Shown: one piece after another, positions 9,188 through 56,508 of the stretch
Layout: each line of letters opens with the position of its first letter
How positions within the stretch are numbered: position 1 is the first letter of the stretch
Assembly (NCBI RefSeq): GCF_001005305.1
Contig: NZ_LBMH01000003.1
Coordinates: 62,001-126,000, forward strand
Reading direction: 5' to 3'
From: Kordia zhangzhouensis
Lineage (GTDB): Bacteria; Bacteroidota; Bacteroidia; Flavobacteriales; Flavobacteriaceae
Length of the DNA: 64,000 nucleotides
Notes under the pieces: model-generated
The model's input: only the letters and a program-made list of their open reading frames with translations
The model's database searches: none
What the model was told of the DNA's origin: nothing
Translations under genes and position numbers: made by a program

Positions 9188-10732
9188 TTAATGAACGCCG
9201 CTCATCAACTTTTTAATAAAAGGCGATATCAACATTACAAGTATTCCAATTCCAGCAGTTAGCACACCAAATACAGCATACACAGAGACATATTGGTATA
9301 ATTGTTCAAATGCCGCTTGGTTACTTCCTGTGAAATTGCTTGTAAGTCCTGTGATTGTTTCAGTAATTTGACCAAAAATCCCACTCGCAAACACATTTTC
9401 TTCCTCAGAAACAGTTGTTAACTTAGCTATTTTTCCAGCAAAAAAGTGTCCATAAAAAGACGCTGAAAAGAACACTCCCATAATGAATGCTAAATACTTT
9501 TTTGGAGAAAGCTCTGTCATTTTAGAAAGTCCTATTGGAGAAATACACAATTCCCCTACTGTTAAAATAAAATACCCTACAAACAAATACCACATAGGCG
9601 TTTTAGCAAATGCATCAACTGAATTTGCCGACATTGCAAAAACAATAAAACCCATTCCTAAAAAGAACAATCCTAACCCTGCTTTAATGGCCGAATTTGG
9701 GTTTTTATTCCTTTGAATCAACACTGTCCATAACCATGAAAAAGGAATAGCCAGTAAAATAATGAATCCTGAGTTGATGCTATTAGTTTGTGCGGCATTC
9801 ATTCCTACAAGATTGATATTACGATCGGCAAATAAAGTCAATGAACTGCCTGCTTGTTCAAAAATTGCCCAAAACAAAGCCATCAAAATGGTAAAATATG
9901 CAGTTACTAACAATCGCCTTTTTGCAATACTTCCCACCGAGCGATAAATGTAAATCATCATTCCAGTAATTGCAATCGTAGCAATCCATACTATATAATG
10001 TTCATACTCATTAAAACGCACAATCATTGCAAAAATAGGAACTGCCAAGAAAGCGCTTAACCAAACCAATTGTCCTTTATTCATCCCTAAAAATCGTTTG
10101 TCATATATTTTTTGATCAGGTACATTTCCTTTTCCTTGAAACACATTTTTTTGGGTTCCTCTATAAAAGAAAAACAGCCCTAACATCATCCCTATTCCTG
10201 CCAACATAAAGCCATAATGCCATCCATATACCTCAGCAAACCATGCACATAGTAATGGAGCAACTGCTCCTCCTATGTTAATTCCCATATAAAAAATGGT
10301 AAATCCAGAATCTCGTCGTTTGTCTTGTTCATCATACAACGCACCAACAAAGGTTGAAATATTCGGTTTAAAAAATCCGTTACCCACTATAATCAAAGCT
10401 AGTGATCCATAAAAAAATACTGGCAATTCTATAGTCAGAAAAAAATGTCCCAATGCCATTAATACACCTCCAAGAAAAATTGCCTTCCGATAGCCTATAT
10501 AATGGTCGGCAATAATACCTCCTAATACTGGTGTCACGTAGACAAGCGACATGTACGCTGCAAAAATTCCAATAGACATATCATCACTAAACAGCAATTG
10601 TTTGGTCATATATAAAATAAGCAATGCTTTCATGCCATAAAAAGAGAAACGCTCCCATAATTCAGCAAAAAACAAATAAAAAAGTCCTTTAGGATGTCCA
10701 AAACGTGTTTCGGAAACTGTAGATGATGTCAT
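9188..10732 (-). CDS. POT/PTR-family peptide:H+ symporter
   Basis: A 514-residue inner-membrane proton-coupled di/tripeptide transporter. The N-terminus carries FAELWERFSFYGMKALLILY, the PTR2 family signature containing the ExxERFxYY-type proton-coupling motif (here ELWERFSFYG). The GGIIADHYIGYRKAI loop and the FTIFYMGINIGGAVAPLL segment in helices 4-5 are also family signatures. About 12-14 membrane helices are visible. Similar proteins are named DtpT or YdgR. It is the last gene of a minus-strand run but is separated by 121 bases, with its own leader. It would import peptides, consistent with the many secreted peptidases in this genome. Confidence 0.93.
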   Translation of the reverse strand: MTSSTVSETRFGHPKGLFYLFFAELWERFSFYGMKALLILYMTKQLLFSDDMSIGIFAAYMSLVYVTPVLGGIIADHYIGYRKAIFLGGVLMALGHFFLTIELPVFFYGSLALIIVGNGFFKPNISTFVGALYDEQDKRRDSGFTIFYMGINIGGAVAPLLCAWFAEVYGWHYGFMLAGIGMMLGLFFFYRGTQKNVFQGKGNVPDQKIYDKRFLGMNKGQLVWLSAFLAVPIFAMIVRFNEYEHYIVWIATIAITGMMIYIYRSVGSIAKRRLLVTAYFTILMALFWAIFEQAGSSLTLFADRNINLVGMNAAQTNSINSGFIILLAIPFSWLWTVLIQRNKNPNSAIKAGLGLFFLGMGFIVFAMSANSVDAFAKTPMWYLFVGYFILTVGELCISPIGLSKMTELSPKKYLAFIMGVFFSASFYGHFFAGKIAKLTTVSEEENVFASGIFGQITETITGLTSNFTGSNQAAFEQLYQYVSVYAVFGVLTAGIGILVMLISPFIKKLMSGVH

Positions 10733-10853
10733 GTATTTTTGGTTTAAAAATTAGTAACATGACAAATATGTTTGGAATAAAAAGGAAATAGAAGTTGTGT
10801 AGTAAAGTATTATAAAAAATAATAAGTTGTGTGAAATTGTAAGTAAAACACAA

Positions 10854-11993
10854 TTAATTACAAATATCCTTATACAATTCATTTTCAGCCTTCTGCACAA
10901 ACTCATGCAGCAATCCTTCATCAATAAAAATGTTCTCAGGAATCATACGCAATCTGTACTTTCCTTCTCCCAAAAACGTAAACAAATCTCTACGTTCTAG
11001 TTGCTGATCAGTTTCTAACTGTAAAATTTCATTGACATTCTCTATAATACGGGTAAGGTAAGTTTGGTTTTTTATTTCTCCGGCAGTACTTACCAACATA
11101 CTTTGTTGATCACTACTTGCATGTGCACGACGAATGGCAAATTTTAGTAAGTTTTTGTATTGAGTAGTTTTAGAGCCAAAATCGACTGTAGCGTTATTGA
11201 TATTTTTTGACGGAATACTCAATTGAATCAATGCCCAGTCCAAAAACCTAATTCGCATTTCATTAGGTCTTGGTGTATTTGCCAATTGAATTACCCAACT
11301 GGTAGCCAGTACCAAAAACAAAGAGATTAAAGAGGTTTTGGCAATAATTTTAATGAGTAACGTAGTAAATTCATCATTGATACTTAAAAACACTTCTGGC
11401 AACTGAGATACCAAAATTAAAAACATGATTACTACCGAAATCATTGCAACCAACTTGAGTCCACGATATAAAAAGGTTTTGTAAAACGATAGCATCAATA
11501 AAAAACATAAAAACCCCGATAGTAGTAAGTCAGGCAATGCATTTAGTTTTACATTATGATAAATATTATTTTCACCTAAAATGGCCGCCATAATCAAAGT
11601 GATTGATGCAACTCCAAATATAATTCCAATTATAATTCGGACATTTTTAGTATTGTTATAAATGAATTTGGGCGCATAATAAAAGTAAAAAAGCGCCATT
11701 AATAAAAATAGGTTGTTGATGATAGACAACAAGTTAACACCTATTTGATAAGTCATACTTTCCGAAAAGTGAAAATGCTTGGACGCATACGCCCATATTC
11801 CAGAGCCAACCCACACAAACATTGCCAAACTCAAATACAACAAACCACTATCAACACGTTTTTGCGACTCATCTTCTTCAAGAATTTGACGGAAACGCTT
11901 CCGAATATTTGAATAAATAGCTAATAGCAGTATCGCTCCAATGAAGGAAATAAAAATATGCGCTAAATTGTGAAATTGCTCTACTGCTGTCAT
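10854..11993 (-). CDS. Hypothetical integral membrane protein in the ACMSD operon
   Basis: A 379-residue protein with about seven to eight predicted membrane helices in the first 235 residues and a cytoplasmic C-terminal domain of about 145 residues (IRFLDWALIQLS ... ERRDLFTFLGEGKYRLRMIPENI). The C-terminal part could be a ligand or protein-binding module; I do not recognise it. It starts 3 bases after the stop of the upstream ACMSD-like gene, so the two are in one transcript. The layout (7TM plus C-terminal module) resembles membrane sensors more than transporters, but that is inference. Confidence 0.72.
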   Translation of the reverse strand: MTAVEQFHNLAHIFISFIGAILLLAIYSNIRKRFRQILEEDESQKRVDSGLLYLSLAMFVWVGSGIWAYASKHFHFSESMTYQIGVNLLSIINNLFLLMALFYFYYAPKFIYNNTKNVRIIIGIIFGVASITLIMAAILGENNIYHNVKLNALPDLLLSGFLCFLLMLSFYKTFLYRGLKLVAMISVVIMFLILVSQLPEVFLSINDEFTTLLIKIIAKTSLISLFLVLATSWVIQLANTPRPNEMRIRFLDWALIQLSIPSKNINNATVDFGSKTTQYKNLLKFAIRRAHASSDQQSMLVSTAGEIKNQTYLTRIIENVNEILQLETDQQLERRDLFTFLGEGKYRLRMIPENIFIDEGLLHEFVQKAENELYKDICN

Positions 11994-14202: not shown

Positions 14203-14991
14203 TTACAACGACTTAGTTCGTCCTCCATCTACAGGCACATTGATTCCATTTATGTAAGAAGCTGCTTCACTTGCCAAAAACGCAATCGCATTGGCAATCT
14301 CGCTAGGTTGTGCAAATCGTTTGGCAGGAATCGCACTTTTCATGGCTTCACCTACTTCTTCAATACTCTTTCCTGTTTTATTTGCTTTGTTTTGTATGAT
14401 TTCCGATAAACGTTCTGTTGCTGTAGCACCAGGTAATACATTATTGACCGTAATTCCAAATTGTCCGAGTTCATTTGCTAACGTTTTTGACCAATTCGCC
14501 ACAGCGCCTCGAATGGTATTCGAAACGCCCAAACCATCCAATGGTTGTTTTACGGAAGTAGAAATTACATTGATAATACGTCCGTAACCCGCCTCTTTCA
14601 TACCTTCTACAACACTTTGCACCAATACATGGTTACATTTTAAATGTTGTGTAAAAGCGCGTTCAAATTCATCAACTTTAGCATTGAATACCGGGCCGCC
14701 TGCAGGACCACCCGTATTGTTGACCAAAATATGAAAGGAATGATTTTTAGCAATAAACGCTTCAATCTTTTCACGAAGTTCATCAGGTTTTTGAAAATCT
14801 GCTACAATATACTTGTGTTGCTGTCCTTGCGAAGTGTCCAATTCGGAAAGTACATTTTTGAGTTTTTCTTCGTTTCTAGCAGTCAACACCACGTTGGCTC
14901 CGAGAGTTGCCAATTCTATAGCTGCCGCTTTTCCGATGCCTTGCGTGCTTCCACAAACGAGGGCGTTTTTGTTTTGTATGTTTAGGTTCAT
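14203..14991 (-). CDS. SDR-family oxidoreductase in the aminomuconate cluster
   Basis: A 262-residue classical short-chain dehydrogenase/reductase. The NAD(P)-binding motif is ALVCGSTQGIGKAAA near residue 10, with an NNTGGPAGG segment (replacing the usual NNAG). The active-site Ser lies in NVISTS, but the usual YxxxK is altered: the segment reads SNTIRGAVANWSKTLA, so the catalytic Tyr is missing. That places it among divergent SDRs, and activity should not be assumed. It is 102 bases downstream of the ALDH gene on the same strand. Its place in the pathway is unassigned. Confidence 0.85.
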   Translation of the reverse strand: MNLNIQNKNALVCGSTQGIGKAAAIELATLGANVVLTARNEEKLKNVLSELDTSQGQQHKYIVADFQKPDELREKIEAFIAKNHSFHILVNNTGGPAGGPVFNAKVDEFERAFTQHLKCNHVLVQSVVEGMKEAGYGRIINVISTSVKQPLDGLGVSNTIRGAVANWSKTLANELGQFGITVNNVLPGATATERLSEIIQNKANKTGKSIEEVGEAMKSAIPAKRFAQPSEIANAIAFLASEAASYINGINVPVDGGRTKSL

Positions 14992-15093: not shown

Positions 15094-16539
15094 TCAAGAA
15101 TACTTAATACACACATTTTTCGGTTCAGTGAAGAAGCGTAGTGCTTCTAGTCCGCCCTCACGTCCTACGCCAGAATTTTTCATTCCTCCAAAAGGGGTAC
15201 GCAAATCCCGTAACAACCATGTATTTACCCAAATAATTCCTGCTTCTAATTGCTTGCTCATTCGCATGGTTCGGTTCAAGTTATTTGTCCACAAAGTAGC
15301 TGATAACCCGTAACGAACTCCATTTGCCATTTGCAAGACTTCTGCTTCGGTATCAAAAGGCATGATTGTGACAATAGGACCAAATATTTCCTCTTGATTT
15401 ACACGACATTGATCGGTGGGTACTTCTATAACTGTTGGTGCTAAATAGTACCCGTTTTCAAATCCTTCAACCGTAACTTCTTTTCCGCCACAAAGTACAA
15501 TTCCGCCTTCGTCTTTGGCAATTTCTATATATGATTTTACTTTTTCTAAATGCGGTTTCGATACTAATGCGCCAACTTTTGTAGTTGCTTCAAATGGATT
15601 TCCTACCTTGAGTTGTTTCACACGTTCCACAAAATCTCTTTTAAACTTATCATAGATACTTCGTTCTACGAAGATACGCGAACCACATAAGCAGATTTGT
15701 CCTTGATTCGCAAAAGACGAACGCACGGTCACATTTAACATTTCTTCATAATCACAGTCTGCAAAAATGATGTTTGGGTTTTTTCCACCTAGTTCTAACG
15801 AAAGTTTTTTAAACATTGGTGCTGCTGTTCGAGCAATATGTGCTCCTGTAGCCGTTCCGCCAGTAAAAGATATTGCTTTGATGTTGGGATGTTCCGTAAT
15901 GGCTTGTCCCGTAGTGTGTCCCAAACCGTGTACAATGTTTAAAACACCGTTTGGCAGACCAGCTTTTGTACAAATGTCTCCTAACAAATAGGCAGTCATC
16001 GGGGTAACTTCACTTGGTTTGGCAACTACCGTATTTCCTGCGGCGAGCGCTGGTGCAATTTTCCATGTGAATAAGTACAGCGGTAAATTCCAAGGAGAAA
16101 TACATCCCACAACACCAATCGGTTGACGCAGTGTGAAATTCATCGCATTCAGACCGACACTTTCGTGGGCTTCACTTGAAAATTGTGTGATAGCTTGCGC
16201 AAAGAATTTAAAATTACTCGTGGCACGTGGAATATCAATTTGAGTAGCTAAACTGAGTGGTTTTCCATTATCCAACGATTCTGCATATGCGAGATCTGGT
16301 AAGTTTTCTTGAATCAGAAAAGCAATTTTATTCAGTATACGACTGCGTTCTTCTAGTGTGGTTTGCGACCAATCGGGAAATGCTGCTTTTGCCGCTTGAT
16401 AGGCAGCCTCTACATCATCGGCAGAAGAGTTTGGAATGTGTCCGTACACTTCTCCATTGGACGGATTGTAATTATCAATCCACTCATTACTTTTAGGTTC
16501 TACATACGTTCCGTTGATATAGTTGAGAATTTTTTTCAT
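15094..16539 (-). CDS. Aldehyde dehydrogenase, probable 2-aminomuconate (or 2-hydroxymuconate) 6-semialdehyde dehydrogenase
   Basis: A 481-residue NAD(P)-dependent aldehyde dehydrogenase. It has the substrate-channel block CISPWNLPLYLFTWKIAPAL, the NAD-binding SFTGGTATG, the general-base Glu in LSLELGGKNP (about 255) and the catalytic Cys in NQGQICLCGSRI (about 282-284). The C-terminal FGGMKNSGVGREGG also fits. Sequence style and the neighbouring RidA and ACMSD-like genes point to oxidation of 2-aminomuconate 6-semialdehyde, the product of ACMSD. It starts 4 bases after the RidA gene. The precise substrate is inferred from context. Confidence 0.87.
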   Translation of the reverse strand: MKKILNYINGTYVEPKSNEWIDNYNPSNGEVYGHIPNSSADDVEAAYQAAKAAFPDWSQTTLEERSRILNKIAFLIQENLPDLAYAESLDNGKPLSLATQIDIPRATSNFKFFAQAITQFSSEAHESVGLNAMNFTLRQPIGVVGCISPWNLPLYLFTWKIAPALAAGNTVVAKPSEVTPMTAYLLGDICTKAGLPNGVLNIVHGLGHTTGQAITEHPNIKAISFTGGTATGAHIARTAAPMFKKLSLELGGKNPNIIFADCDYEEMLNVTVRSSFANQGQICLCGSRIFVERSIYDKFKRDFVERVKQLKVGNPFEATTKVGALVSKPHLEKVKSYIEIAKDEGGIVLCGGKEVTVEGFENGYYLAPTVIEVPTDQCRVNQEEIFGPIVTIMPFDTEAEVLQMANGVRYGLSATLWTNNLNRTMRMSKQLEAGIIWVNTWLLRDLRTPFGGMKNSGVGREGGLEALRFFTEPKNVCIKYS

Positions 16540-48924: not shown

Positions 48925-49692
48925 GTGAGAAAACTTTTTAAATATATACTCAATAACATTCCAAGACCTCTTTTAATTAAAATGAGTTATTGGATTCGCC
49001 CAATCATTACACTGGTATTAAAAGGTAATAAATATACCGATCCTATTGATGGAAAAAGTTTTCGATCATTCCTATCTTATGGATATGCAATCAATAGAGA
49101 AAATGCACTGTCTCCAAGCACACTATCCTTAGAACGTCATCGGTTGTTGTGGCTGTATTTAAAAAATGAAACAGACTTTTTTACCAAACCTCAAAAAGTA
49201 TTACACTTTGCACCTGAGCAAGCATTTTATAAACGTTTCAAGAAACAGAAAAATTTAGACTATACTACAACCGATCTTTTTTCTCCTTTGGCAGATGTAA
49301 AAGCAGATATATGTGATTTGCCTTTTGAAGACAATTCATTTGATACCATTCTTTGCAACCACGTATTAGAACATATTCCTGACGATACCAAAGCCATGGA
49401 AGAATTGTATCGCATATTAAAACCAAATGGCATGGCTATCTTACAGATTCCGCAAGATTTGGAACGCAAAAAAACTTTTGAAGATGATTCCATCACCGAT
49501 AAAAAAGAGCGAACTAAAATCTTTGGGCAGTATGACCATGTGCGTGTGTATGGACTCGATTATTTTGACAAACTCAGAAGCGTAGGTTTTACCGTTAAAG
49601 AAGTATCCTATACCAATCATTTCACTCCCGAAGAGATTGAAAGATATTGCTTAATGGAAGGCGAAATTATTCCTGTGTGTTTTAAGAAGTAA
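48925..49692 (+). CDS. Class I SAM-dependent methyltransferase
   Basis: A 255-residue methyltransferase with a GTG start at 48925, the first start codon in the frame after the map stop. An N-terminal helical segment (about 1-90) precedes the SAM domain: LHFAPEQAFYK (motif I), ADICDLPFEDNSFDTILCNH (motif II/III) and the conserved EELYRILKPNGMAILQIPQD. Substrate unknown. It is probably the last gene of the HAD-map-methyltransferase operon. Confidence 0.88.
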   Translation: MRKLFKYILNNIPRPLLIKMSYWIRPIITLVLKGNKYTDPIDGKSFRSFLSYGYAINRENALSPSTLSLERHRLLWLYLKNETDFFTKPQKVLHFAPEQAFYKRFKKQKNLDYTTTDLFSPLADVKADICDLPFEDNSFDTILCNHVLEHIPDDTKAMEELYRILKPNGMAILQIPQDLERKKTFEDDSITDKKERTKIFGQYDHVRVYGLDYFDKLRSVGFTVKEVSYTNHFTPEEIERYCLMEGEIIPVCFKK

Positions 49693-49990
49693 GTAGCAGG
49701 TTTTAGTAATCAACTATGAGATTCTTCCTAAATCTCTCGTTCCCGTAAATTGTAAGCTCAAATACTTCCTTCACAGTAGTATTTCCAAATTGCGATTTGA
49801 ATATAAAATGCCAAATCGGGCGCAGCGAGATTGCTTAAAAAAACACCCTAGTTTCTGCTCTTCTCAAAAGCAACCAACTTGACAAAGATTCATTCTTCCA
49901 TTTATTTTTTTAGAACACTTAAGCAACATTTGATGAAGAGGAAAAATAATTATGCAAAGGTGCTATATTCCATTTGAAAAGCTATAAAAC

Positions 49991-50022
49991 AAAAAAGAGA
50001 ATCTTTATCGTAAAGATTCTCT
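49991..50022 (-). terminator. Intrinsic terminator of a short minus-strand transcript
   Basis: The stem AGAGAATCTTTA/TAAAGATTCTCT has loop TCG. On the minus strand it is followed by TTTTTT. No ORF ends just upstream of it, so it may terminate a noncoding RNA. Confidence 0.85.
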
Positions 50023-50080
50023 TGTAAATAATTAAGAAAGTGATGCTTTCTTCTGTATAAAAAGCCCCTATCCTTTGTTT
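49996..50080 (-). ncRNA. Candidate short noncoding RNA under a LytTR-type tandem site
   Basis: On the minus strand a -7-like TATTTTAG (50087-50094, 7 of 8 matches to TAnnTTTG) lies 29 bases downstream of the tandem site at 50123-50156 and 65 bases before the terminator stem ends. Transcription should start near 50080 and stop near 49996, giving about 85 bases. Inside is a further hairpin (AAGAAAG/CTTTCTT around 50034-50052). The longest ORF is about nine codons. The claim rests only on promoter-terminator geometry. Confidence 0.35.
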
Positions 50081-50122
50081 CGTAATCTAAAATACATGAG
50101 ATGATTTATCAACAATGGCAAT

Positions 50123-50156
50123 AGTTGCTGAAAGTGTTTTTTAAGTTGCTGAAAGT
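50123..50156 (-). promoter_or_regulatory. Tandem LytTR-type binding site, two identical 13-mers
   Basis: AGTTGCTGAAAGT occurs at 50123-50135 and again at 50144-50156, exactly 21 bp apart, in direct orientation. LytTR-family regulators bind direct repeats about two helical turns apart. The site lies 29 bases upstream of a -7-like element on the minus strand. Confidence 0.6.
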
Positions 50157-50243
50157 TGATTTTTGTTTAATTACTCGATACTCCACCTAAATTTCTTAAC
50201 ACGTGTCTAACATATGATTCTTTAGTTGTATTTCGAAATAAAA

Positions 50244-50270
50244 ATCCTGCGATAGTAACTATCGCAGGAT
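50244..50270 (-). terminator. Intrinsic terminator downstream of the 35-codon ORF
   Basis: The stem ATCCTGCGATAG/CTATCGCAGGAT has a 3-base loop TAA, with TTTTATTT on the minus strand after it. It follows a short minus-strand ORF ending at 50294. Confidence 0.8.
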
Positions 50271-50293
50271 AACAGTAAAAACTAAACTATAAA

Positions 50294-50401
50294 TTATTGC
50301 TTGATAAAACGTTTGGTTACTCTAGTCACCGCTTTGTCCCTTATAATTGCACAGCCACAATCTTTAGTACTTCTATTGTTATGTTGCATCGTATAGTTCA
50401 T
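50294..50401 (-). CDS. Small ORF of 35 codons, possible peptide gene
   Basis: ATG at 50401 to TAA at 50294 encodes MNYTMQHNNRSTKDCGCAII then RDKAVTRVTKRFIKQ, with a Cys-Gly-Cys and a basic C-terminus. It sits between terminators at 50453 and 50244 on the same strand, so the interval is likely transcribed on its own. It has no GG leader. The case is that a minus-strand promoter-terminator unit contains just this frame; coding is not proven. Confidence 0.35.
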   Translation of the reverse strand: MNYTMQHNNRSTKDCGCAIIRDKAVTRVTKRFIKQ

Positions 50402-50446
50402 CCATCCAAAAGTGTATTACTTTCTGTAGTATATAAAGTAAGGAGA

Positions 50447-50472
50447 AAAGAAAAGCGAACCGAAGTTCGCTT
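50447..50472 (-). terminator. Intrinsic terminator after the peptide precursor at 50499
   Basis: The stem AAGCGAAC/GTTCGCTT has loop CGAA, and on the minus strand it is followed by TTTTCTTTTCT. It lies 27 bases beyond the stop of the precursor gene. Confidence 0.75.
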
Positions 50473-50498
50473 AAAATTAAACGATTAATACGTTAAAA

Positions 50499-50705
50499 CT
50501 AACATAATCTTGAATCACCACATAATACATTTGTATATACACAATCCAAACCAGCTATTGTCGCAAGCGTATTACAATTATCACCTTCCGTATAAGGAGG
50601 CACATCACAATAAGCAAGAGTTCTAGGAAGTGCTCCTCCATTAACTTCAAAGTTAGAAATAGACTTTTTGTTTAGCTTCAAAGATTTAAGATTTCTTTTT
50701 TTCAT
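50499..50705 (-). CDS. GG-leader Cys-rich peptide precursor next to the LytTR system
   Basis: A 68-residue peptide from the ATG at 50705; an in-frame ATG 19 codons earlier only adds a hydrophobic stretch unlike the sister peptides' starts. The leader MKKRNLKSLKLNKKSISNFE ends with VNGG. The core ALPRTLAYCDVPPYTEGDNC continues to NTLATIAGLDCVYTNVLCGD and SRLC, with five Cys and Thr/Ser residues suited to thioether formation. It is 180 bases downstream of the LytTR regulator gene on the same strand, with a tandem LytTR-type site in the gap and a terminator after it. Confidence 0.75.
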   Translation of the reverse strand: MKKRNLKSLKLNKKSISNFEVNGGALPRTLAYCDVPPYTEGDNCNTLATIAGLDCVYTNVLCGDSRLC

Positions 50706-50822
50706 AATGAATGATTTTACAATTAATAATGCAGTAAATAAATGAAAAAAAACAAGCGTCAAAAAGAAGAGTAATAGACGTTTTATAAAACATCAAGCCT
50801 GAAAATTAATAATTTACGAAGG

Positions 50823-50831
50823 CAAAAAGTA
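50823..50831 (-). promoter_or_regulatory. Likely -7 element of the peptide gene at 50705
   Basis: The minus strand reads TACTTTTTG, one base longer than TAnnTTTG, 24 bases below the tandem LytTR-type site at 50855. The distance to the peptide ATG implies a leader of about 110 bases. Confidence 0.35.
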
Positions 50832-50854
50832 TGCAGCATGCTGTATATATTGCT

Positions 50855-50888
50855 AGTTGCTGAAAGTAGGTTTTGAATTGCTAAACTA
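50855..50888 (-). promoter_or_regulatory. Tandem LytTR-type binding site upstream of the peptide gene
   Basis: AGTTGCTGAAAGT at 50855-50867 is followed 21 bp later by AATTGCTAAACTA at 50876-50888 (8 of 13 matches, 8 of the first 10). The second half overlaps the stop codon of the LytTR regulator gene. Confidence 0.6.
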
Positions 50889-51641
50889 GCATCCAATGTT
50901 TTGAACAATAGCTAAGAACTCTTCTTTTTTGTCTTTAGAAATTGAAACCGTTTGATTATTATCCATAACAATATATCCTCCATCTTTTTTGATATATTCT
51001 TTAATGAATTTTAAGTTGATAAGATATGAACGATGTGGTTTGTAAAAAACAGTTACTTTTTCTAGAAGAGATACAAAATGTTTTAGAGGTTTACTGACTA
51101 AGATTTCCGAGTTATTGATTGTCGTAATTTTGGTATACATTCCATCTGCTTCGAGCAAAATAATCTCATTGAAGTTTACAAATTTGAAACCGTCTGAAAA
51201 TGGCAGTCCAATTTTATGAAAGTTTGAAGAAGCTAGACTTTGTTTGAGTTCTTCTAGTTTTATGTTGATTTGTGATTTGCCTATATGTGCCATTGCTTTT
51301 TCTACAGCATTTAGTATTTGTGTAGCACGTACTGGTTTCAAGAGATAATCAATAGCAGACAACTCAAAGGCTTTAATTGCATATTCGCTGTATGCCGTAG
51401 TAAAAATGATTTCAAAATTGAACTGTTCTTTTCCTATAAAATCAAGAATTTCTAGCCCCGAATGTTGTGGCATTTCTATGTCTAAAAATACAATATGTGG
51501 TTGTTCTTTTTTGATGAGTTCTACACCTGCTAACAAATCTTCTGCTTCATATATTTTTTTTATGTTAGGGCAATTTTCATCAAGCAACACATGTAGTAAG
51601 TTTCTAGCTTTACGCTCATCATCTATAATTAATGCTTTCAT
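50886..51641 (-). CDS. LytTR-family response regulator of the peptide-linked system
   Basis: A 251-residue regulator. The receiver domain has DDERKARN at the start, phospho-Asp in IVFLDIEMPQHSG and Lys in YLLKPVRATQIL. The C-terminal LytTR domain has FKFVNFNEIILLEADGMYTKI and the HRSYLINLKFIKEYIKKDGG beta region. It lies 18 bases downstream of its kinase gene. Tandem copies of a 13-mer at 21-bp spacing around this locus are the likely targets, including the kinase promoter (autoregulation). Confidence 0.95.
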   Translation of the reverse strand: MKALIIDDERKARNLLHVLLDENCPNIKKIYEAEDLLAGVELIKKEQPHIVFLDIEMPQHSGLEILDFIGKEQFNFEIIFTTAYSEYAIKAFELSAIDYLLKPVRATQILNAVEKAMAHIGKSQINIKLEELKQSLASSNFHKIGLPFSDGFKFVNFNEIILLEADGMYTKITTINNSEILVSKPLKHFVSLLEKVTVFYKPHRSYLINLKFIKEYIKKDGGYIVMDNNQTVSISKDKKEEFLAIVQNIGC

Positions 51642-51659
51642 GGTTTTTTGGTTTTTTAT

Positions 51660-54584
51660 TTATAGGTTTTTTATAGGGATTGTGATGATTACTTTTGTTC
51701 CACAAGATTGCCCGTGAACATCGTACAAGTCTTCTATTGAAACTCCTATTTGTTTTTCTTTTCCATAATTCAGTAAATGCAATCTATCTTGTGTGGCTTG
51801 TGTTCCAAACGATTGATGCATTTTATCTTTTTTTTCTTTTATAGCCACTGCTTTCTCCCTGCCAATCCCGTTATCTTCAATAATACAAGTAATTACATCC
51901 GTAACATCCGAACCAAGCAAAGTAATGTATAGCTTTCTATCATTTTTTTTATGCAATAATCCATGTTTCAGAGCATTTTCTACATATGGCTGAATAAGCA
52001 TCGTAGGAATCGTGACTGTTTCAGTGTCTATAGTCTTTGCAATGTTAAAAGAGTACTGTAATTTATCCTCAAAACGCAATTTTTCTAATTCCAGATACAT
52101 TTGCAAACATTCTATTTCATCCTGTAAAGAGATTGTTCCGCGATTACTATGATTGAGGTATGTGCGAATTAGATCGGCAAATTTACCCAGATAATCACTT
52201 GCAAGATTTTTTTTGTTGAGGATAATGTATTCTTGAATGGAATTTAGCGCATTGAATATAAAGTGTGGATTCATTTGTGAACGCAAGTTTTCAAGTTTTA
52301 AGAAAACAAGTTCACGCTCTTGTGCCAGTTTTTCTAGTTCTTTATTTTTTTGTTTCTCACGCTTGCTCAAAATTGTCCTATAATACAGAACTATGAGCAG
52401 TAACAGTATAAAAATGACAATTAAAATAAACCATGTTCGTTTCCAAAAAGGACTTTCAATTGCAATATTAATTGCTGCTATTTTAGATTCTCCTGCTAGA
52501 GAGGTAGACACCGCTTTTACTTGAAAAGTATAGTTTCCTACGGGTAAACTATTATATTTTACAAAATCGATTTCTTCATCTACAGGAATCCAATCATCTT
52601 TATATCCTAGTAAACGACTGAAATAACGAATGTGTTCCTTAGAACGAAAACCATTGGCATTGAAACTTAGTTTGATTGCGTTTTGATAGTGAGGCAATCT
52701 ATATTTTTTGTGAAGCAATGTGTCTTTTTCATTGATTTGAATTCCTGTAAAATAGATTTCAGGCTGAGTTTTAGGCTGAAAAGCCGTTTTTCGGTCAATT
52801 GAAAAAATTCCTTTGTTGGTTGCAAATACAACATGATTTTTAAATGGAATTATATCACTTACTAAAAAAGTGTTTATACCATCACTTTTTGTGAGCGTTT
52901 TAAATGTATTGCTTTTTGTGTCTAATAATTGGATTCCTTTATTTGTAATAATCCACAATTGATCTCCATCACTCTGAATGGTTTGTGTACGATCGGATAT
53001 CAGTCCGTTTTTAATAGAGTAGTTAATGACGACACTATCGTTTTGAATACCATATATTCCATCTTTGAAGGTAGATGCCCAAATCATTCCATCGTTAGTT
53101 TTTGTAATTCCCATGGCATGAATTCGTTTTCCTTGATACCTAATTTTGGTTGCTTTGAAATCTTCATCAAACTTTACAAAATCATCTACGTAGGATATGT
53201 AACTATGTTTACTAATCGTATCATGAAAGCCTTTGTAACCACGTACACCCCTAAAACGCATGATTTCCTTCCCATTCTTTATACGAACACCTCCGTTATA
53301 GTTTGTATAGAAAAATTCAAAAGCATTAAGATAAGACAAGCTCAGGGCATTGTTAAATAAATCATTCGATTGGTAACTTTTGGTTTTTAAATCGTAGATG
53401 TACGACTTAGATTTTGAACTTATATAAAGTAGCTCTTGATTTTTATCATACAGTGCTGCATTTATTTTTGCATTGGTTGGTAAATCTGTCTCTTGATACG
53501 TATGTGTTTTCACATTATAAAAACCTGTTTTTCCATTGGTTGTCCCATAAAAGAATGTGTGTTCATTGATTTTTTCAATACAGTTAAAATCTTTTATTTC
53601 TTCCGGAAAATCATAGTAATAATTATTGATATTGGGAATTACTACAACTCCATTACGCAATGTTGTCAACCAATAATTTTCGTTTTTATCAACGATTAAC
53701 TGTGAAACATATAGATTTTTAAAATATCTATTTTTATACACTACTTGATTCTCTTCTAAGGCATAAACCCACAAACCACTTGATGAAGATAAAAGCATTT
53801 GATCATCATGGAAACTAACGGCAACAATGTAACTATTCTTGAGTTCCTCCATAAGTTCAATCTCTTGATACTGCCCGGTATTCACATCAAATATGTATAG
53901 ACTTGATTTATTTTCTTTGTCTACAAACCGTAAATATGTCTTTTTTTTGTAGCCAATAATCATTGACTTACCAAGTATTCGATGATGAAGGTCATTATAG
54001 ATTGCTTCTGAAGTAATGCGTTTAGTAATATTTAATTCTAAATCTAGTGTAATGATACTCTCTCCTGTCGTAATATATATTTCGTCTTTATATTTGTAAG
54101 GATACCCAATTAAATCATCTGAAACTTTTACACGAGCTTCAATTTTTTTGGTTTCTAATGATATTTTATAGATTACTCGCGAAGCAAATACCAACAAATG
54201 GGTTTTGGTAATGAGAAAACTTCCCAAACGCCAGTTAATTTCTTGACCTAGATCGATAAAGGTAACCAACTTGTCATTTTCTACGTAGAAAAATTGCCCT
54301 GAAACATTACAGCACCACACTCTTCCTTTATGGTCTTCACGTGGTTCAAAAACAGATAGTCCACGTTTTTCCTTATTTGTATAAATCTTGAACTCGTTTC
54401 CATCATACCGATAAAATCCTTTGTCGGCTGCTAACCATATAAATCCTTTACTATCTTCTACCACGTTATAGAATTCTATATCTGGCAATCCATCTTTTTC
54501 TGTGAATTGGGTATAGATAGGATGCTGACCATATGCAGTATAGAAAAGCAGAAGAATAAATAAGCAGTGTATTTTTTTTATCAA
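51660..54584 (-). CDS. Two-component propeller sensor histidine kinase (ligand-binding propeller, Y_Y_Y, His_kinase)
   Basis: A 974-residue membrane kinase with a TTG start at 54584, forced by a TGA stop three codons upstream and by the signal (LFILLLFYTAYGQ). The N-terminal two-thirds is a double-propeller reporter domain (repeats such as SKGFIWLAADKGFYRYDG and NDGMIWASTFKDGIYG), then a Y_Y_Y domain (about 640-710). One membrane helix near 725-745 leads into the His_kinase domain. Its phospho-His is in RSQMNPHFIFNALNSIQEYI, with the N-box PYVENALKHGLLH and G-box EDNGIGREKA. Its LytTR partner follows. The ligand could be a peptide or a saccharide. Confidence 0.93.
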   Translation of the reverse strand: MIKKIHCLFILLLFYTAYGQHPIYTQFTEKDGLPDIEFYNVVEDSKGFIWLAADKGFYRYDGNEFKIYTNKEKRGLSVFEPREDHKGRVWCCNVSGQFFYVENDKLVTFIDLGQEINWRLGSFLITKTHLLVFASRVIYKISLETKKIEARVKVSDDLIGYPYKYKDEIYITTGESIITLDLELNITKRITSEAIYNDLHHRILGKSMIIGYKKKTYLRFVDKENKSSLYIFDVNTGQYQEIELMEELKNSYIVAVSFHDDQMLLSSSSGLWVYALEENQVVYKNRYFKNLYVSQLIVDKNENYWLTTLRNGVVVIPNINNYYYDFPEEIKDFNCIEKINEHTFFYGTTNGKTGFYNVKTHTYQETDLPTNAKINAALYDKNQELLYISSKSKSYIYDLKTKSYQSNDLFNNALSLSYLNAFEFFYTNYNGGVRIKNGKEIMRFRGVRGYKGFHDTISKHSYISYVDDFVKFDEDFKATKIRYQGKRIHAMGITKTNDGMIWASTFKDGIYGIQNDSVVINYSIKNGLISDRTQTIQSDGDQLWIITNKGIQLLDTKSNTFKTLTKSDGINTFLVSDIIPFKNHVVFATNKGIFSIDRKTAFQPKTQPEIYFTGIQINEKDTLLHKKYRLPHYQNAIKLSFNANGFRSKEHIRYFSRLLGYKDDWIPVDEEIDFVKYNSLPVGNYTFQVKAVSTSLAGESKIAAINIAIESPFWKRTWFILIVIFILLLLIVLYYRTILSKREKQKNKELEKLAQERELVFLKLENLRSQMNPHFIFNALNSIQEYIILNKKNLASDYLGKFADLIRTYLNHSNRGTISLQDEIECLQMYLELEKLRFEDKLQYSFNIAKTIDTETVTIPTMLIQPYVENALKHGLLHKKNDRKLYITLLGSDVTDVITCIIEDNGIGREKAVAIKEKKDKMHQSFGTQATQDRLHLLNYGKEKQIGVSIEDLYDVHGQSCGTKVIITIPIKNL

Positions 54585-54605
54585 GTTACTTCACATTTTA
54601 ACTTT

Positions 54606-54613
54606 CAAAATTA
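54606..54613 (-). promoter_or_regulatory. -7 element of the sensor kinase operon
   Basis: The minus strand reads TAATTTTG, an exact TAnnTTTG, 21 bases before the TTG start. It has no good -33 TTG; instead the tandem LytTR-type site lies 28 bases upstream, as in an activator-dependent promoter. Confidence 0.6.
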
Positions 54614-54640
54614 CAATATATAATGTAGAGGCTATGTGTT

Positions 54641-54674
54641 ACTTTTTGAAAGTACTATTTCAGTTGCTAAAAAG
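54641..54674 (-). promoter_or_regulatory. Tandem LytTR-type binding site upstream of the kinase operon
   Basis: ACTTTTTGAAAGT (54641-54653) and AGTTGCTAAAAAG (54662-54674) are each 10 of 13 matches to AGTTGCTGAAAGT and are 21 bp apart. This is the third such tandem site in the region. It implies that the regulator controls its own operon. Confidence 0.55.
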
Positions 54675-54690
54675 GATACGTAAAAAACAT

Positions 54691-54730
54691 AAAAAAAGAT
54701 CTGTAATAAAAATTACAGACCTTCTTTTTT
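54691..54730 (-). terminator. Intrinsic terminator after the peptide precursor at 54747
   Basis: The stem AGATCTGTAAT pairs with ATTACAGACCT (one mismatch) around an AAAA loop. T-runs flank both sides; on the minus strand it ends the transcript of the gene stopping at 54747. Confidence 0.75.
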
Positions 54731-54746
54731 TAAGAATACGATTTTA

Positions 54747-54995
54747 TTAGCAAATCCCTACAGGTTCACATGAAATACTTGGTTGACAGTTTCCTGTTGG
54801 AGGACAGCCATTCGTTGGGCATCCTGCGCTTGGACAACCTATATTAGTTCCACATACATCTGTGGCACAATTGGTATCTGCGTCTGCTAAACATGATTCT
54901 GTTCTAAGTCCACCAGTAATTGCTGCTGAATTTAGGTGAGATACCATGTTTTTGGTCAATTTTAATCCGTTGTGTTTTAAATTTCTTTTTTTCAT
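54747..54995 (-). CDS. GG-leader Cys-rich peptide precursor (paralogue 1)
   Basis: An 82-residue peptide. The leader MKKRNLKHNGLKLTKNMVSH leads to LNSAAITGG. The core starts LRTESCLADADTNC and has nine Cys in a spaced pattern (ATDVCGTNIGCPSAGCPTNG, CPPTGNCQPSISCEPVGIC). It is clearly related to the gene at 55110, sharing CxADADTNC and the CEPxGIC end. Thr/Ser residues between the Cys make it a candidate for lanthionine or other thioether modification. No modification enzyme is nearby. It has its own promoter block. Confidence 0.8.
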   Translation of the reverse strand: MKKRNLKHNGLKLTKNMVSHLNSAAITGGLRTESCLADADTNCATDVCGTNIGCPSAGCPTNGCPPTGNCQPSISCEPVGIC

Positions 54996-55060
54996 GATAT
55001 TGTTTAAGTTTTGTGGTTAATTCCTAATATACATGATTATAAACACTTTACACGAATTAC

Positions 55061-55097
55061 AACCTCACAAAGTATACACTAAAACCGTAGTTAACAA
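55061..55097 (-). promoter_or_regulatory. Conserved upstream block of paralogue 1
   Basis: A 37-base segment (AACCTCAC ... ACTAAAACC ... GTTAACA) matches the block upstream of the second paralogue at 26 of 37 positions without gaps, and sits 66 bases before the ATG. It includes a minus-strand TTG-N18-TATACTTTG promoter-like pair. Such conservation between paralogues suggests a shared regulatory site. Confidence 0.5.
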
Positions 55098-55109
55098 TTT
55101 TAGAAATCG

Positions 55110-55358
55110 CTAGCAAATTCCGTTAGGCTCACATGAAATGGAAGGAATACACAACTCTGTTGGTTCGCAATCAACTGTATACGGGCATCCTAATGCTGTT
55201 TGGCATGTTCCTGTAACCGCTCCACAATTGGTGTCTGCGTCAGCAAAACAAGAAAAAGTTGCTATACGGATTCCTCCTTTTAGATTGTCAGTAGATAATT
55301 TTGAAACAATGTTTTTGTTCAAACTAAGTCCTCTGTGTTTTAAATTCTTTTTTTTCAT
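55110..55358 (-). CDS. GG-leader Cys-rich peptide precursor (paralogue 2)
   Basis: An 82-residue peptide of the same length and style as its neighbour. The leader MKKKNLKHRGLSLNKNIVSK is followed by LSTDNLKGG. The core opens IRIATFSCFADADTNCGAVT and continues GTCQTALGCPYTVDCEPTEL to CIPSISCEPNGIC, with eight Cys. The leader is the best conserved part of the family and the core is diversified, as expected for a peptide whose leader is read by a shared enzyme. The two copies are 114 bases apart, in tandem, downstream of apbE. Confidence 0.82.
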   Translation of the reverse strand: MKKKNLKHRGLSLNKNIVSKLSTDNLKGGIRIATFSCFADADTNCGAVTGTCQTALGCPYTVDCEPTELCIPSISCEPNGIC

Positions 55359-55421
55359 GATATGATTTTTAGATAGTTTGTGTTAAAAATACTTCTATTT
55401 TAACCACAACCTATCTATAAA

Positions 55422-55458
55422 AACCTCACGATAAGTATTTTAAAACCTTAATTAACAT
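55422..55458 (-). promoter_or_regulatory. Conserved upstream block of paralogue 2
   Basis: The gap-free partner of the block at 55061: AACCTCACG, then TTTTAAAACCTTAATTAACA. It lies 64 bases before the ATG at 55358, the same distance as in the paralogue. Confidence 0.5.
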
Positions 55459-55479
55459 TTTACATTGGTTTTACTACGC

Positions 55480-56508
55480 TTATTTAATGATTAAATCTTG
55501 AAAGCCCTTGGTTACATATTTTTGAATATTACCAAATTGATCGCGACTTACCACATACGCATCAACGTCTTCCAATTCACTTAATAACTTTTTGGTTTTT
55601 TCGTATGGCATTACCATGAATGCAGTTGCATATGCATCTGCTTTCATACAATTATCTGCAATTACAGAAACACTCAACACATTATTCTTCATCGGATAGC
55701 CTGTTTTTGCATTTAGTATGTGTACATAGTGATCTCCTGTTTCAGGGTCAATTCTGAATTTACGATAGTTTCCAGATGTTGCCATTGCTTTATTTTCTAG
55801 AAAAATGTATTCCATGTATTGACGCTCTGCGTCATCATCTTGCACAGGACTATCAATTGCTACTGTCCATGGTTGTACCCTTTTGGTATTTTTACCTTTT
55901 GTTAGAATTTCTCCTCCTACCTCGATAATGTAGTTGTTAATTCCTTTTTCATCAAACATTTTCCCAATAAGATCAATCGCATATCCTTTTCCTAATGCAT
56001 TAAAGTCAAAAGTTACAGACGGATGTGCTTTAGAGATTTTCCTATCAGGAGAAAGACTTACCTTATCAAATCCGGTAAACTCCATAATACTATCAACTTG
56101 TTTTCCTGTAAGATTGTTGATAGGTTTTTCTGGACCAAATCCCCAAGCGTTTACCAAAGCACCCACACTTGGATCAAAGTAGCCATCTGTTTTTTGATAC
56201 ACTTCTCTGGAGAATTCATACACTTCTTTAAAATAATCATCTACCACAACTCCTTCTTCTCCTCTATTGATTCTAGAAATGTCTGAAGTAGGAATGTAAG
56301 CGGACATTGATTTGTTTACAATATGAAAAACATTTTCTATATCTTCTTGAAAATCTTGTTTTTCATTTTCTATTTCGTATTGAATTGTATACGTAGTTCC
56401 TAAAGCAAAGCCAGTATTAGCACGCATAATTACGTCTTTAGGTTTGTTGACACAGGAGGTCATTAAAAAAGCTATACATATGTATAGGGGAAATGTAATT
56501 GCTTTCAT
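55480..56508 (-). CDS. apbE: FAD:protein FMN transferase (lipoprotein)
   Basis: A 342-residue ApbE that attaches FMN by phosphodiester linkage to Thr residues in NqrB and NqrC. The lipoprotein signal ends at LMTSC. Flavin and metal signatures are TGFALGTTYTIQY, FDFNALGKGYAIDL, YIIEVGGEI and AMATSGNYRKF; MKADAYATAFMVM is near the end. It is the last gene of the nqr-associated minus-strand run, which explains its presence here. Confidence 0.95.
   Translation of the reverse strand: MKAITFPLYICIAFLMTSCVNKPKDVIMRANTGFALGTTYTIQYEIENEKQDFQEDIENVFHIVNKSMSAYIPTSDISRINRGEEGVVVDDYFKEVYEFSREVYQKTDGYFDPSVGALVNAWGFGPEKPINNLTGKQVDSIMEFTGFDKVSLSPDRKISKAHPSVTFDFNALGKGYAIDLIGKMFDEKGINNYIIEVGGEILTKGKNTKRVQPWTVAIDSPVQDDDAERQYMEYIFLENKAMATSGNYRKFRIDPETGDHYVHILNAKTGYPMKNNVLSVSVIADNCMKADAYATAFMVMPYEKTKKLLSELEDVDAYVVSRDQFGNIQKYVTKGFQDLIIK

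What the first reader, a model, noticed from the sequence alone, without database searches (positions are those of the whole stretch)
50123..54674. Three 21-bp-spaced tandem 13-mers point to a self-regulated LytTR circuit around peptide genes
The 13-mer AGTTGCTGAAAGT occurs twice at 50123/50144 (13 of 13 in both). Diverged tandem copies occur at 50855/50876 and 54641/54662, always exactly 21 bp apart and in the same orientation. A -7-like element lies 24-29 bases downstream of each tandem on the minus strand (50087-50094, 50823-50831, 54606-54613). The sites lie upstream of a predicted short RNA, a Cys-rich peptide gene and the kinase-regulator operon. Established knowledge: LytTR regulators bind direct repeats about two helical turns apart. 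Inference: this regulator switches on its own operon, the peptide and the RNA.
Basis: partly seen in the sequence, partly recalled or inferred. Interest (0 to 1): 0.82.

Follow-up and report, generated by a model that had tools for sequence, protein, structure and literature searches.

The report
Self-controlled LytTR switch with lost targets
A marine bacterium carries a sensor-regulator pair whose paired DNA sites, kept at the same spacing in related bacteria, probably let it switch on itself, surface-type proteins and a few small cysteine-rich peptides; here the neighbouring surface-protein genes are gone and mainly their switches remain.

Summary
The three tandem sites are real and not chance. 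On the minus strand they read TTYAGNAA-N13-TTYAGNAA, 21-bp period. In the window and 18 same-genus stretches that period occurs 54 times against 1-15 at 32 other distances, with a TAnnTTTG-like box exactly 28/29 bp downstream in 36 of 54. The arrangement recurs at orthologous pairs in 19 loci of other Bacteroidota: 16 of 19 have a site within 320 bp after the regulator, 11 of 19 in the 3.2 kb before it. In six Kordia relatives the sites precede the kinase, a large secreted-type protein operon and, in four, a 106-aa gene. The window's genome lost those genes: its 'short RNA' is leader plus terminator of the deleted 106-aa gene, and the site before the Cys-rich peptide is the relic promoter of the deleted operon, its spacing shortened to 24. 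Peptides are nevertheless a target class: 3 of 107 GG-leader genes found carry the site, syntenic peptide sites occur only in genomes with the regulator, and a two-base signature ties them to this regulator. First reading partly supported: autoregulation strongly, peptide circuit in general, this peptide doubtful, RNA a relic. Binding and expression untested.

The parts
50886..51641 (-). LytTR response regulator (251 aa): receiver domain plus LytTR DNA-binding domain
   Evidence: Pfam Response_reg 1.4e-21 and LytTR 7.5e-16; intact ORF
51660..54584 (-). Sensor kinase (974 aa): propeller repeats, Y_Y_Y domain, LytS-type His_kinase
   Evidence: Pfam His_kinase 1.1e-24, Y_Y_Y 2.7e-8, Reg_prop 5.5e-7
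54641..54674 (-). Tandem site 1, promoter of the kinase-regulator operon; -7 box TAATTTTG at 54606-54613, gap 28
   Evidence: 34.6 bits with model R1 (in its training set)
50855..50888 (-). Tandem site 2, relic promoter of the deleted secreted-protein operon, now before the peptide gene; -7-like TACTTTTTG at 50823-50831, gap 24
   Evidence: 23.2 bits with R1, not in its training set; tandem score 29.7, best of 107 peptide upstreams
50804..50885 (-). Relic promoter and start of the 5' leader of the large secreted-type protein gene
   Evidence: 72-74% DNA identity over 85-86 bp with that gene's promoter in G007, G004, G001, G003, G009 (about 30 bp of it is the site itself); only 26 bp in G008
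50499..50705 (-). 68-aa Cys-rich GG-leader peptide precursor (leader LxLxKx5F...GG)
   Evidence: leader motif compared with PMC7268733 (passages); below the cut-off of NF038153 (7.7 against 22 bits)
50453..50472 (-). Terminator-like hairpin after the peptide gene
50262..50317 (-). Relic 3' end (last codons and start of terminator) of the deleted operon; terminator-like hairpin 50244-50270
   Evidence: 100% over 34 bp with G001 and 86% over 57 bp with G007, at the end of their 271/272-aa gene with type IX tail; shorter matches in the other four; hairpin
50123..50156 (-). Tandem site 3, relic promoter of the deleted 106-aa gene; -7 box TATTTTAG at 50087-50094, gap 29
   Evidence: 36.4 bits with R1 (in its training set)
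49978..50102 (-).
   Evidence: leader matches G001 (80% over 46 bp), 3' end matches G004, G009, G001 (74-78% over 63-78 bp); gene absent from own genome
54747..54995 (-). GG-leader Cys-rich peptide gene upstream of the kinase; no tandem site
55110..55358 (-). Second GG-leader Cys-rich peptide gene; no tandem site; class I lanthipeptide leader above NCBIfam cut-off
   Evidence: NF038153 23.2 bits, cut-off 22

Best explanation
The regulator at 50886-51641 binds tandem TTYAGNAA-N13-TTYAGNAA sites as a dimer and, from there, recruits RNA polymerase to a TAnnTTTG box 28-29 bp downstream. It thereby switches on its own kinase-regulator operon and a small set of exported products: in relatives an adjacent operon of secreted-type proteins (some with type IX sorting tails) plus a 106-aa protein, and in Kordia also a few dispersed GG-leader, Cys-rich (lanthipeptide-like) peptide genes. 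The kinase has propeller and Y_Y_Y sensor domains, so the trigger is probably outside the cytoplasm. In the window's genome the adjacent target genes were deleted; sites 50855 and 50123 are relic promoters, one now standing before a peptide gene with altered -7 spacing, the other making at most a short read of a deletion scar. Shown: sequence, spacing, conservation, co-occurrence, deletion scars. Inferred: binding, activation (not repression), dimer, signal.
For: 21-bp period 54 against 1-15 at 32 other distances, four scrambled half-sites 0-11 at 21; -7 box at gap 28/29 in 36 of 54 pairs (related sequences, so not independent). Sites in Kordia orthologs before the kinase (7 of 7 genomes), the large gene (6 of 6 relatives) and the 106-aa gene (4 of 6). 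Out-of-genus replication: 19 of 19 loci have at least one site, 16 of 19 within 320 bp after the regulator, 40 sense hits against 5 antisense and 1 in two reversed controls, 29 of 40 with the -7 box at 28/29. Own genome: the five best R1 hits, among 150 candidates scored, are the three window sites and the two of one paralog pair. 3 of 107 peptide upstreams score 22.9-29.7, the fourth 7.7; antisense and reversed none over 12. Synteny: group i, sites before peptides in G000, G001 (two), G008, G009; group ii, sites in G000, G003, G007, G008, G009; no peptide-linked site in either group in the four congeners without the ortholog. Two-base signature: YY at positions 9-10 in 19 of 20 main sites, 18 of 18 selected other-genus sites, 14 of 14 listed peptide sites, 0 of 22 paralog-system sites. 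Deletion scars.
Against: No binding or expression data. Group ii: G001 has two peptides there without a site, and in G003 the site is about 410 bp before the peptide. G004 has only the three sites of the main locus at E<=0.01; G007 and G008 have none over threshold before the 106-aa gene. In own genome only 3 of the 107 peptide genes found have the site, two of them with poor or misplaced -7 boxes. Site 50855 lies 24, not 28, from its -7-like box. R1 and the position matrix were trained on sites first picked by half-site score, four of the five own top hits were in training, and R1 scored only 150 candidates per genome, so it can miss sites (it did not list the C2 peptide site). In group i a 10.3-bit hit without a good -7 box lies in G006, which lacks the ortholog. 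The motif fades in loci at 43-55% identity: 2 of 12 had any intergenic hit. Four of 14 paralog or distant loci (G010 C10, G005, G055, G048) show no site of this form or only weak ones.
Confidence: 0.82

Rival explanations
1. The sites are bound by a paralogous LytTR regulator (the genome has 21 LytTR matches), not by the adjacent one.
For: 21 LytTR matches in the genome; paralog pairs use very similar tandem sites with the same spacing.
Against: Sites sit beside this regulator or its orthologs in Kordia and in 19 other loci; positions 9-10 differ between main (YY 19/20) and paralog sites (YY 0/22); in the four congeners without the ortholog no listed hit at E<=0.01 precedes a peptide gene.
Confidence: 0.08
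2. The sites repress rather than activate, or mark binding of another protein such as a dedicated repressor or nucleoid protein.
For: Direction of control is not shown by any data here.
Against: Sites lie upstream of, not over, the -7 box at a fixed distance, as at activated LytTR promoters (PMC6193735 and PMC4227749, passages); between tandem and -7 box only two A/T-rich columns of the 41 aligned sites exceed 0.7 bits, so no strong -33 element is seen.
Confidence: 0.1
3. Site 50123 drives a functional small RNA, and the scar reading is wrong.
For: Stable fold, z-score -4.6, largely the terminator hairpin; two relatives (G003 15144, G009 14655) have an extra site before a short hairpin-ended stretch.
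Against: Leader and 3' end align with those of the 106-aa gene of relatives, and that gene was not found in this genome; no Rfam match in 49600-55500 came near its gathering score, two weak ones lay elsewhere.
Confidence: 0.12
4. The tandem is a chance or coding repeat with no regulatory role.
For: Single 13-mers are at background; two of the four best pattern matches in the genome lie inside ORFs.
Confidence: 0.01

Closest known systems
LytTR Regulatory Systems of Streptococcus mutans (HdrRM, BrsRM; PMC6193735, abstract start and passages seen)
   Same: LytTR regulator, two direct repeats of 9 bp separated by 12 bp (21-bp period) just upstream of the promoter, direct positive autoregulation, bacteriocin genes among targets
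   Different: There the partner is an inhibitory membrane protein and the promoters are -35/-10; here a propeller-type histidine kinase, a receiver domain and the TAnnTTTG promoter of flavobacteria
Plantaricin regulon PlnABCD of Lactobacillus plantarum C11 (PMC2714321, abstract and passages seen)
   Same: Kinase plus LytTR response regulators, auto-regulatory operon, conserved tandem repeats before several operons including bacteriocin operons
   Different: The Pln regulatory operon encodes an inducing peptide; here no peptide gene lies inside the operon and the adjacent targets in relatives are large secreted-type proteins
AgrA of Staphylococcus aureus (PMC4227749, abstract start and passages seen)
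   Same: LytTR domain, two direct repeats upstream of the promoters of its own locus
   Different: Different promoter type; pheromone-fed system (recalled)
Class I lanthipeptide precursors of Bacteroidetes (PMC7268733, passages seen; NCBIfam NF038153)
   Same: Leader with LxLxKx5L-like motif ending in GG, Cys-rich core
   Different: The window peptide has F for the last L and scores below the family cut-off; modification genes were not looked for; over 100 such genes were found in the genome
sigma-A promoters of flavobacteria, TAnnTTTG at -12 to -5 (PMC9723704, passages seen)
   Same: -7 box
   Different: The word LytTR does not occur in its main text

Membership tests
LytTR two-component response regulators | Receiver domain plus LytTR DNA-binding domain | tested here: met
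   Pfam 77.2 and 58.6 bits, both over cut-off
LytTR two-component response regulators | Direct repeats about 21 bp apart upstream of the promoter | tested here: met
   Sequence only:
LytTR two-component response regulators | Binds DNA at these repeats | not testable with these tools
   Needs EMSA or footprinting
LytTR Regulatory System (LRS) sensu PMC6193735 | Regulator paired with an inhibitory membrane protein instead of a kinase | tested here: not met
   Partner is a His_kinase protein and the regulator has a receiver domain
Plantaricin-type peptide quorum-sensing regulon | Inducing peptide encoded in the regulatory operon | tested here: not met
   No room for a peptide ORF between kinase and regulator in the window or in six orthologs
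Plantaricin-type peptide quorum-sensing regulon | Regulator controls secreted GG-leader peptide genes | tested here: inconclusive
   3 of 107 own peptide genes found and several in relatives carry the site; expression and export untested
Class I lanthipeptide precursor (NF038153) | Leader over the curated cut-off of 22 bits | tested here: not met
   Window peptide 7.7 bits; of eight other site-bearing peptides scanned, six match below the cut-off (10.9-19.2 bits) and two not at all; the site-less neighbour 55110-55358 meets it with 23.2
Class I lanthipeptide precursor (NF038153) | LanB/LanC modification enzymes | not tested
   Genome not searched for them

The most novel reading that the evidence does not exclude
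Kordia uses this kinase-LytTR pair as a self-amplifying peptide circuit: one or more of the site-bearing GG-leader peptides, once exported, is read back by the propeller kinase, a Gram-negative counterpart of the plantaricin and Blp regulons (Blp recalled), with the secreted-protein operon as ancestral output.
Probability: 0.12. Interest if true: 0.88.

Novelty: new variant of a known kind. Interest (0 to 1): 0.63.

Why it matters
LytTR regulators are many in this genome (21 matches), yet the six literature searches that named LytTR listed no paper whose shown title or abstract start reports a binding site for one in Bacteroidota; I did not read all listed papers, and subscription journals are mostly not held. 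A site with defined half-sites, a two-base specificity signature and a fixed distance to the -7 box makes regulons of these proteins predictable, links a sensor to secreted-type proteins in many genera, and picks 3 of 107 orphan peptide genes in one genome as co-regulated and worth testing. The window also shows a regulon caught after losing its neighbouring targets.

Tried and rejected
Single 13-mer counts are uninformative. A loose tandem pattern genome-wide gives mostly weak matches; only its best were looked at. Rfam gave nothing near gathering level. One search read loci of minus-strand hits unturned (I reread their strands from the table); one search had the same fault for the synteny test and was repeated with the right strand. 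A search for the large protein in the own genome found C-terminal and repeat-domain relatives elsewhere (best 60-63% over about 250 aa), so the locus gene is absent but its C-terminal domain type is not. No structure was predicted; the 60 PDB matches shown cover the receiver part of the regulator only. L278-L322 (45 of 80 loci) were not scanned. Of 26 non-training R1 hits, 20 were fetched and read, three more lie at known systems by position (G007 C135 and C162, G008 C2:18415), three were not examined. R1 and A3 searches scored at most 150 candidates per genome, so their counts are lower bounds. No formal probability was computed because sites in relatives are not independent.
Full report
What was checked. 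A third exact 13-mer is at 50855. As single 13-mers they are at background; as tandems they are not: pattern GTTGCTRAA-N12-GTTGCTRAA, up to 3 mismatches, gives 4 matches in the window, three of them these sites, with 0.37 expected and no shuffle of 100 reaching 4. All three point the same way as the minus-strand genes; on that strand the site reads TTYAGNAA-N13-TTYAGNAA.

The genes. The operon on the minus strand is a 974-aa kinase (propeller repeats, Y_Y_Y, His_kinase) and a 251-aa LytTR response regulator. The window lies in a 4.03-Mb genome with 21 LytTR matches. Six of ten congeners have an ortholog at 84-87% (G001, G003, G004, G007, G008, G009); in G005, G006 and G010 the best match is 49-52% and in G002 none reaches E 1e-50.

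What the sites do in relatives. In those six the regulator is followed by a 1269-1502-aa protein with a signal-like start, in some a 271/272-aa one, and further on a 106-aa protein. Domains found are fn3 and choice-of-anchor Q in the large protein (two scanned, no type IX tail found) and a type IX sorting tail in the 271-aa protein. Tandem sites stand before the kinase, before the large gene (6 of 6) and before the 106-aa gene (4 of 6; none over threshold in G007 and G008), 28 or 29 bp from a TAnnTTTG-like box; G007's kinase site has a degenerate first half. Scanning 19 same-genus stretches (window, L061-L077, L080) without regard to genes, pairs of TTYAGNAA at distance 21 number 54; the other 32 distances between 12 and 44 give 1-15; four scrambled half-sites give 0-11 at 21. 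The -7 box (at least 7 of 8 positions, two of them free) is at gap 28 or 29 in 36 of the 54 pairs and at any other gap at most 3 times. These counts include orthologs and are not independent.

Paralogs share the design. Ten of 14 loci of paralogous or more distant pairs carry the same kind of tandem before the kinase, before a nearby gene with a signal-like start, or both, at gap 28/29; G010 C10, G005, G055 and G048 do not or only weakly. Forty-one sites were aligned and made into a sequence-only model R1.

Own genome. Among 150 candidates scored, R1 ranks the three window sites and the two of the C40 paralog pair first (36.4, 34.6, 33.6, 31.2, 23.2 bits). Four of the five were in training; the 23.2-bit one, site 50855, was not. 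The sixth (20.7 bits, not in training, L093) lies before another GG-leader Cys-rich peptide gene. Of the next ten, nine lie inside ORFs.

Other genera. I then took the loci that are not Kordia and have 56-76% identity (19 loci: L246, L248-L265, including records titled Winogradskyella, Tenacibaculum, Dokdonia, Ulvibacter, Aquimarina, Sediminicola and Marinoscillum). None was in training. With the tandem matrix at 13 bits: 40 sense hits, 5 antisense, 1 in the two reversed controls; 16 of 19 have a site within 320 bp after the regulator (the contig of L261 ends at the regulator), 11 of 19 in the 3.2 kb before it, 19 of 19 have at least one, and 29 of 40 have their best -7 box at 28/29. Winogradskyella L257 has four successive genes each with its own site. 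Of six target proteins scanned in these loci, three (L263, L257, L249) have type IX tails and laminin-G-like domains and three gave no family. In 12 further loci at 43-55% identity only two had any intergenic hit.

What happened in the window. The 106-aa gene was not found in the genome and is present in all six ortholog genomes and in G005. DNA comparison shows relics in order: window 50804-50885 matches the promoter and leader start of the large gene (72-74% over 85-86 bp in five relatives, the site itself included); 50262-50317 matches the last codons and terminator start of the 271/272-aa gene (34 of 34 with G001); 50057-50102 matches the leader (G001) and 49978-50053 the 3' end with terminator (G004, G009, G001) of the 106-aa gene (in one search local alignments beat the best of 30 shuffles clearly in G001, G004 and G008 and modestly in G003, G009 and G007). 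So the 'short RNA' is a deletion scar with its promoter and terminator, and the peptide gene 50499-50705 stands behind the relic promoter of the secreted-protein operon, whose spacing to the -7 box is 24 instead of 28. G010 (L167), and probably G002 (L164), look further along: beside the same two peptide genes and methyltransferase the kinase, regulator and targets are not seen and a relic of the last promoter is left.

Peptides. The GG-leader family is very large: 107 matches in this genome and 119 to 150 in the others, with at most 150 candidates scored per genome, so these are lower bounds. I read 260 bp upstream of all 107: three score 29.7 (window), 23.1 (C39) and 22.9 (C2), the next 7.7; antisense and reversed controls give none over 12, nor do 49 mechanical ATG ORFs of 150 aa or more in the window (the kinase's own site is out of their reach, because its listed start is TTG). 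In the six ortholog genomes R1 gave 54 hits at E<=0.01, 28 of them training sites. Of the other 26 I read 20: 3 inside ORFs; 8 with a GG-leader peptide starting 19-43 bp after the site match; 1 with a 71-aa GG peptide at 60 bp; 2 with a peptide at 197 and 346 bp; 4 before large genes with signal-like starts; 2 before peptidase S41-like genes (one of the two confirmed by Pfam). In the four congeners without the ortholog plus four other-genus genomes, R1 gave 20 hits: 8 training sites at paralog pairs, 12 others, of which 7 lie inside ORFs and none precedes a peptide gene. Two syntenic groups read in all 11 genomes: group i, each peptide found in a genome with the ortholog has the site (own, G001 twice, G008, G009), and the one peptide in a genome without it (G005) has none; group ii, sites in own, G003 (about 410 bp from the peptide), G007, G008, G009, none in G001 despite two peptides, none in G006 and G010, which have peptides but no ortholog. 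A 10.3-bit hit without a good -7 box and away from any peptide is seen in G006.

Which regulator. Positions 9-10 of the site are two pyrimidines in 19 of 20 main-system sites, 18 of 18 selected other-genus sites and 14 of 14 listed peptide sites, and in 0 of 22 paralog-system sites (the sites of L182 and L187 were not in the list). This ties the peptide genes to the window's regulator rather than to its paralogs. It is correlation, not binding.

Comparison with what is known. Direct repeats of 9 bp separated by 12 bp just upstream of the promoter, with positive autoregulation, are established for LytTR systems of Streptococcus mutans (PMC6193735, passages); tandem repeats before an auto-regulatory kinase-regulator operon and bacteriocin operons are known from plantaricin (PMC2714321, abstract and passages); AgrA binds two direct repeats upstream of P2 and P3 (PMC4227749, passages). 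TAnnTTTG is the flavobacterial -7 box (PMC9723704, passages). Bacteroidetes class I precursors with LxLxKx5L leaders, many ending in GG, are described in PMC7268733 (passages). So the mechanism is of a known kind; new are the site, its geometry and its regulon in this phylum, as far as listings of six searches naming LytTR show (not all listed papers were read). Papers on Kordia and Flavobacteriaceae genomes mention lanthipeptide clusters in the passages seen, without a LytTR link there (PMC7477175, PMC10734526, PMC7440613).

Verdict. Observation confirmed; interpretation partly supported and widened. Shown by sequence: sites, geometry, conservation, association, scars. Inferred: binding, activation, signal, and whether the window peptide is still under control.

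Noticed in passing
own genome and ten congeners: GG-leader Cys-rich peptide precursors number at least 107 in this genome and at least 119 to 150 in the other congeners; very many such genes for one genus.
   Followed up: partly
L062 about 15285-15320, L063 about 14785-14820, L066 about 16280-16315, L065 about 15710-15745, and the equivalents in L064 and L061: A hairpin (ATCGGATTGT...CAATCCGAT type) lies between the secreted-protein operon and the 106-aa gene in all six relatives; in G003 and G009 an extra tandem site precedes it, so a short regulated RNA may exist there.
   Followed up: no
L072:8608-8684, 9872-9948; L073:8954-9030, 10783-10859: In one paralog system an inverted repeat such as GCCTC-N6-GAGGC abuts the -7 box (CATTTTTG); it may be a second operator or an upstream terminator overlapping the promoter.
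   Followed up: no
L167 (G010) and L164 (G002): Beside the same two peptide genes and methyltransferase the kinase-regulator-target block is not seen while a relic of the last promoter remains, so the system may have been lost in steps.
   Followed up: partly
L175, L179, L154: A gene of about 330-419 aa (peptidase S41 by Pfam in L175, alike by eye in the others) has a tandem site in G008, G001 and, weaker, in G005, which lacks the main regulator ortholog but has the 106-aa gene.
   Followed up: partly
L257, L264 (Winogradskyella): L257 has four tandem sites in a row, each 66-69 bp before a gene with a signal-like start; L264 has four too, one before masked sequence. This suggests repeated duplication of promoter plus gene beside the regulator.
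   Followed up: no
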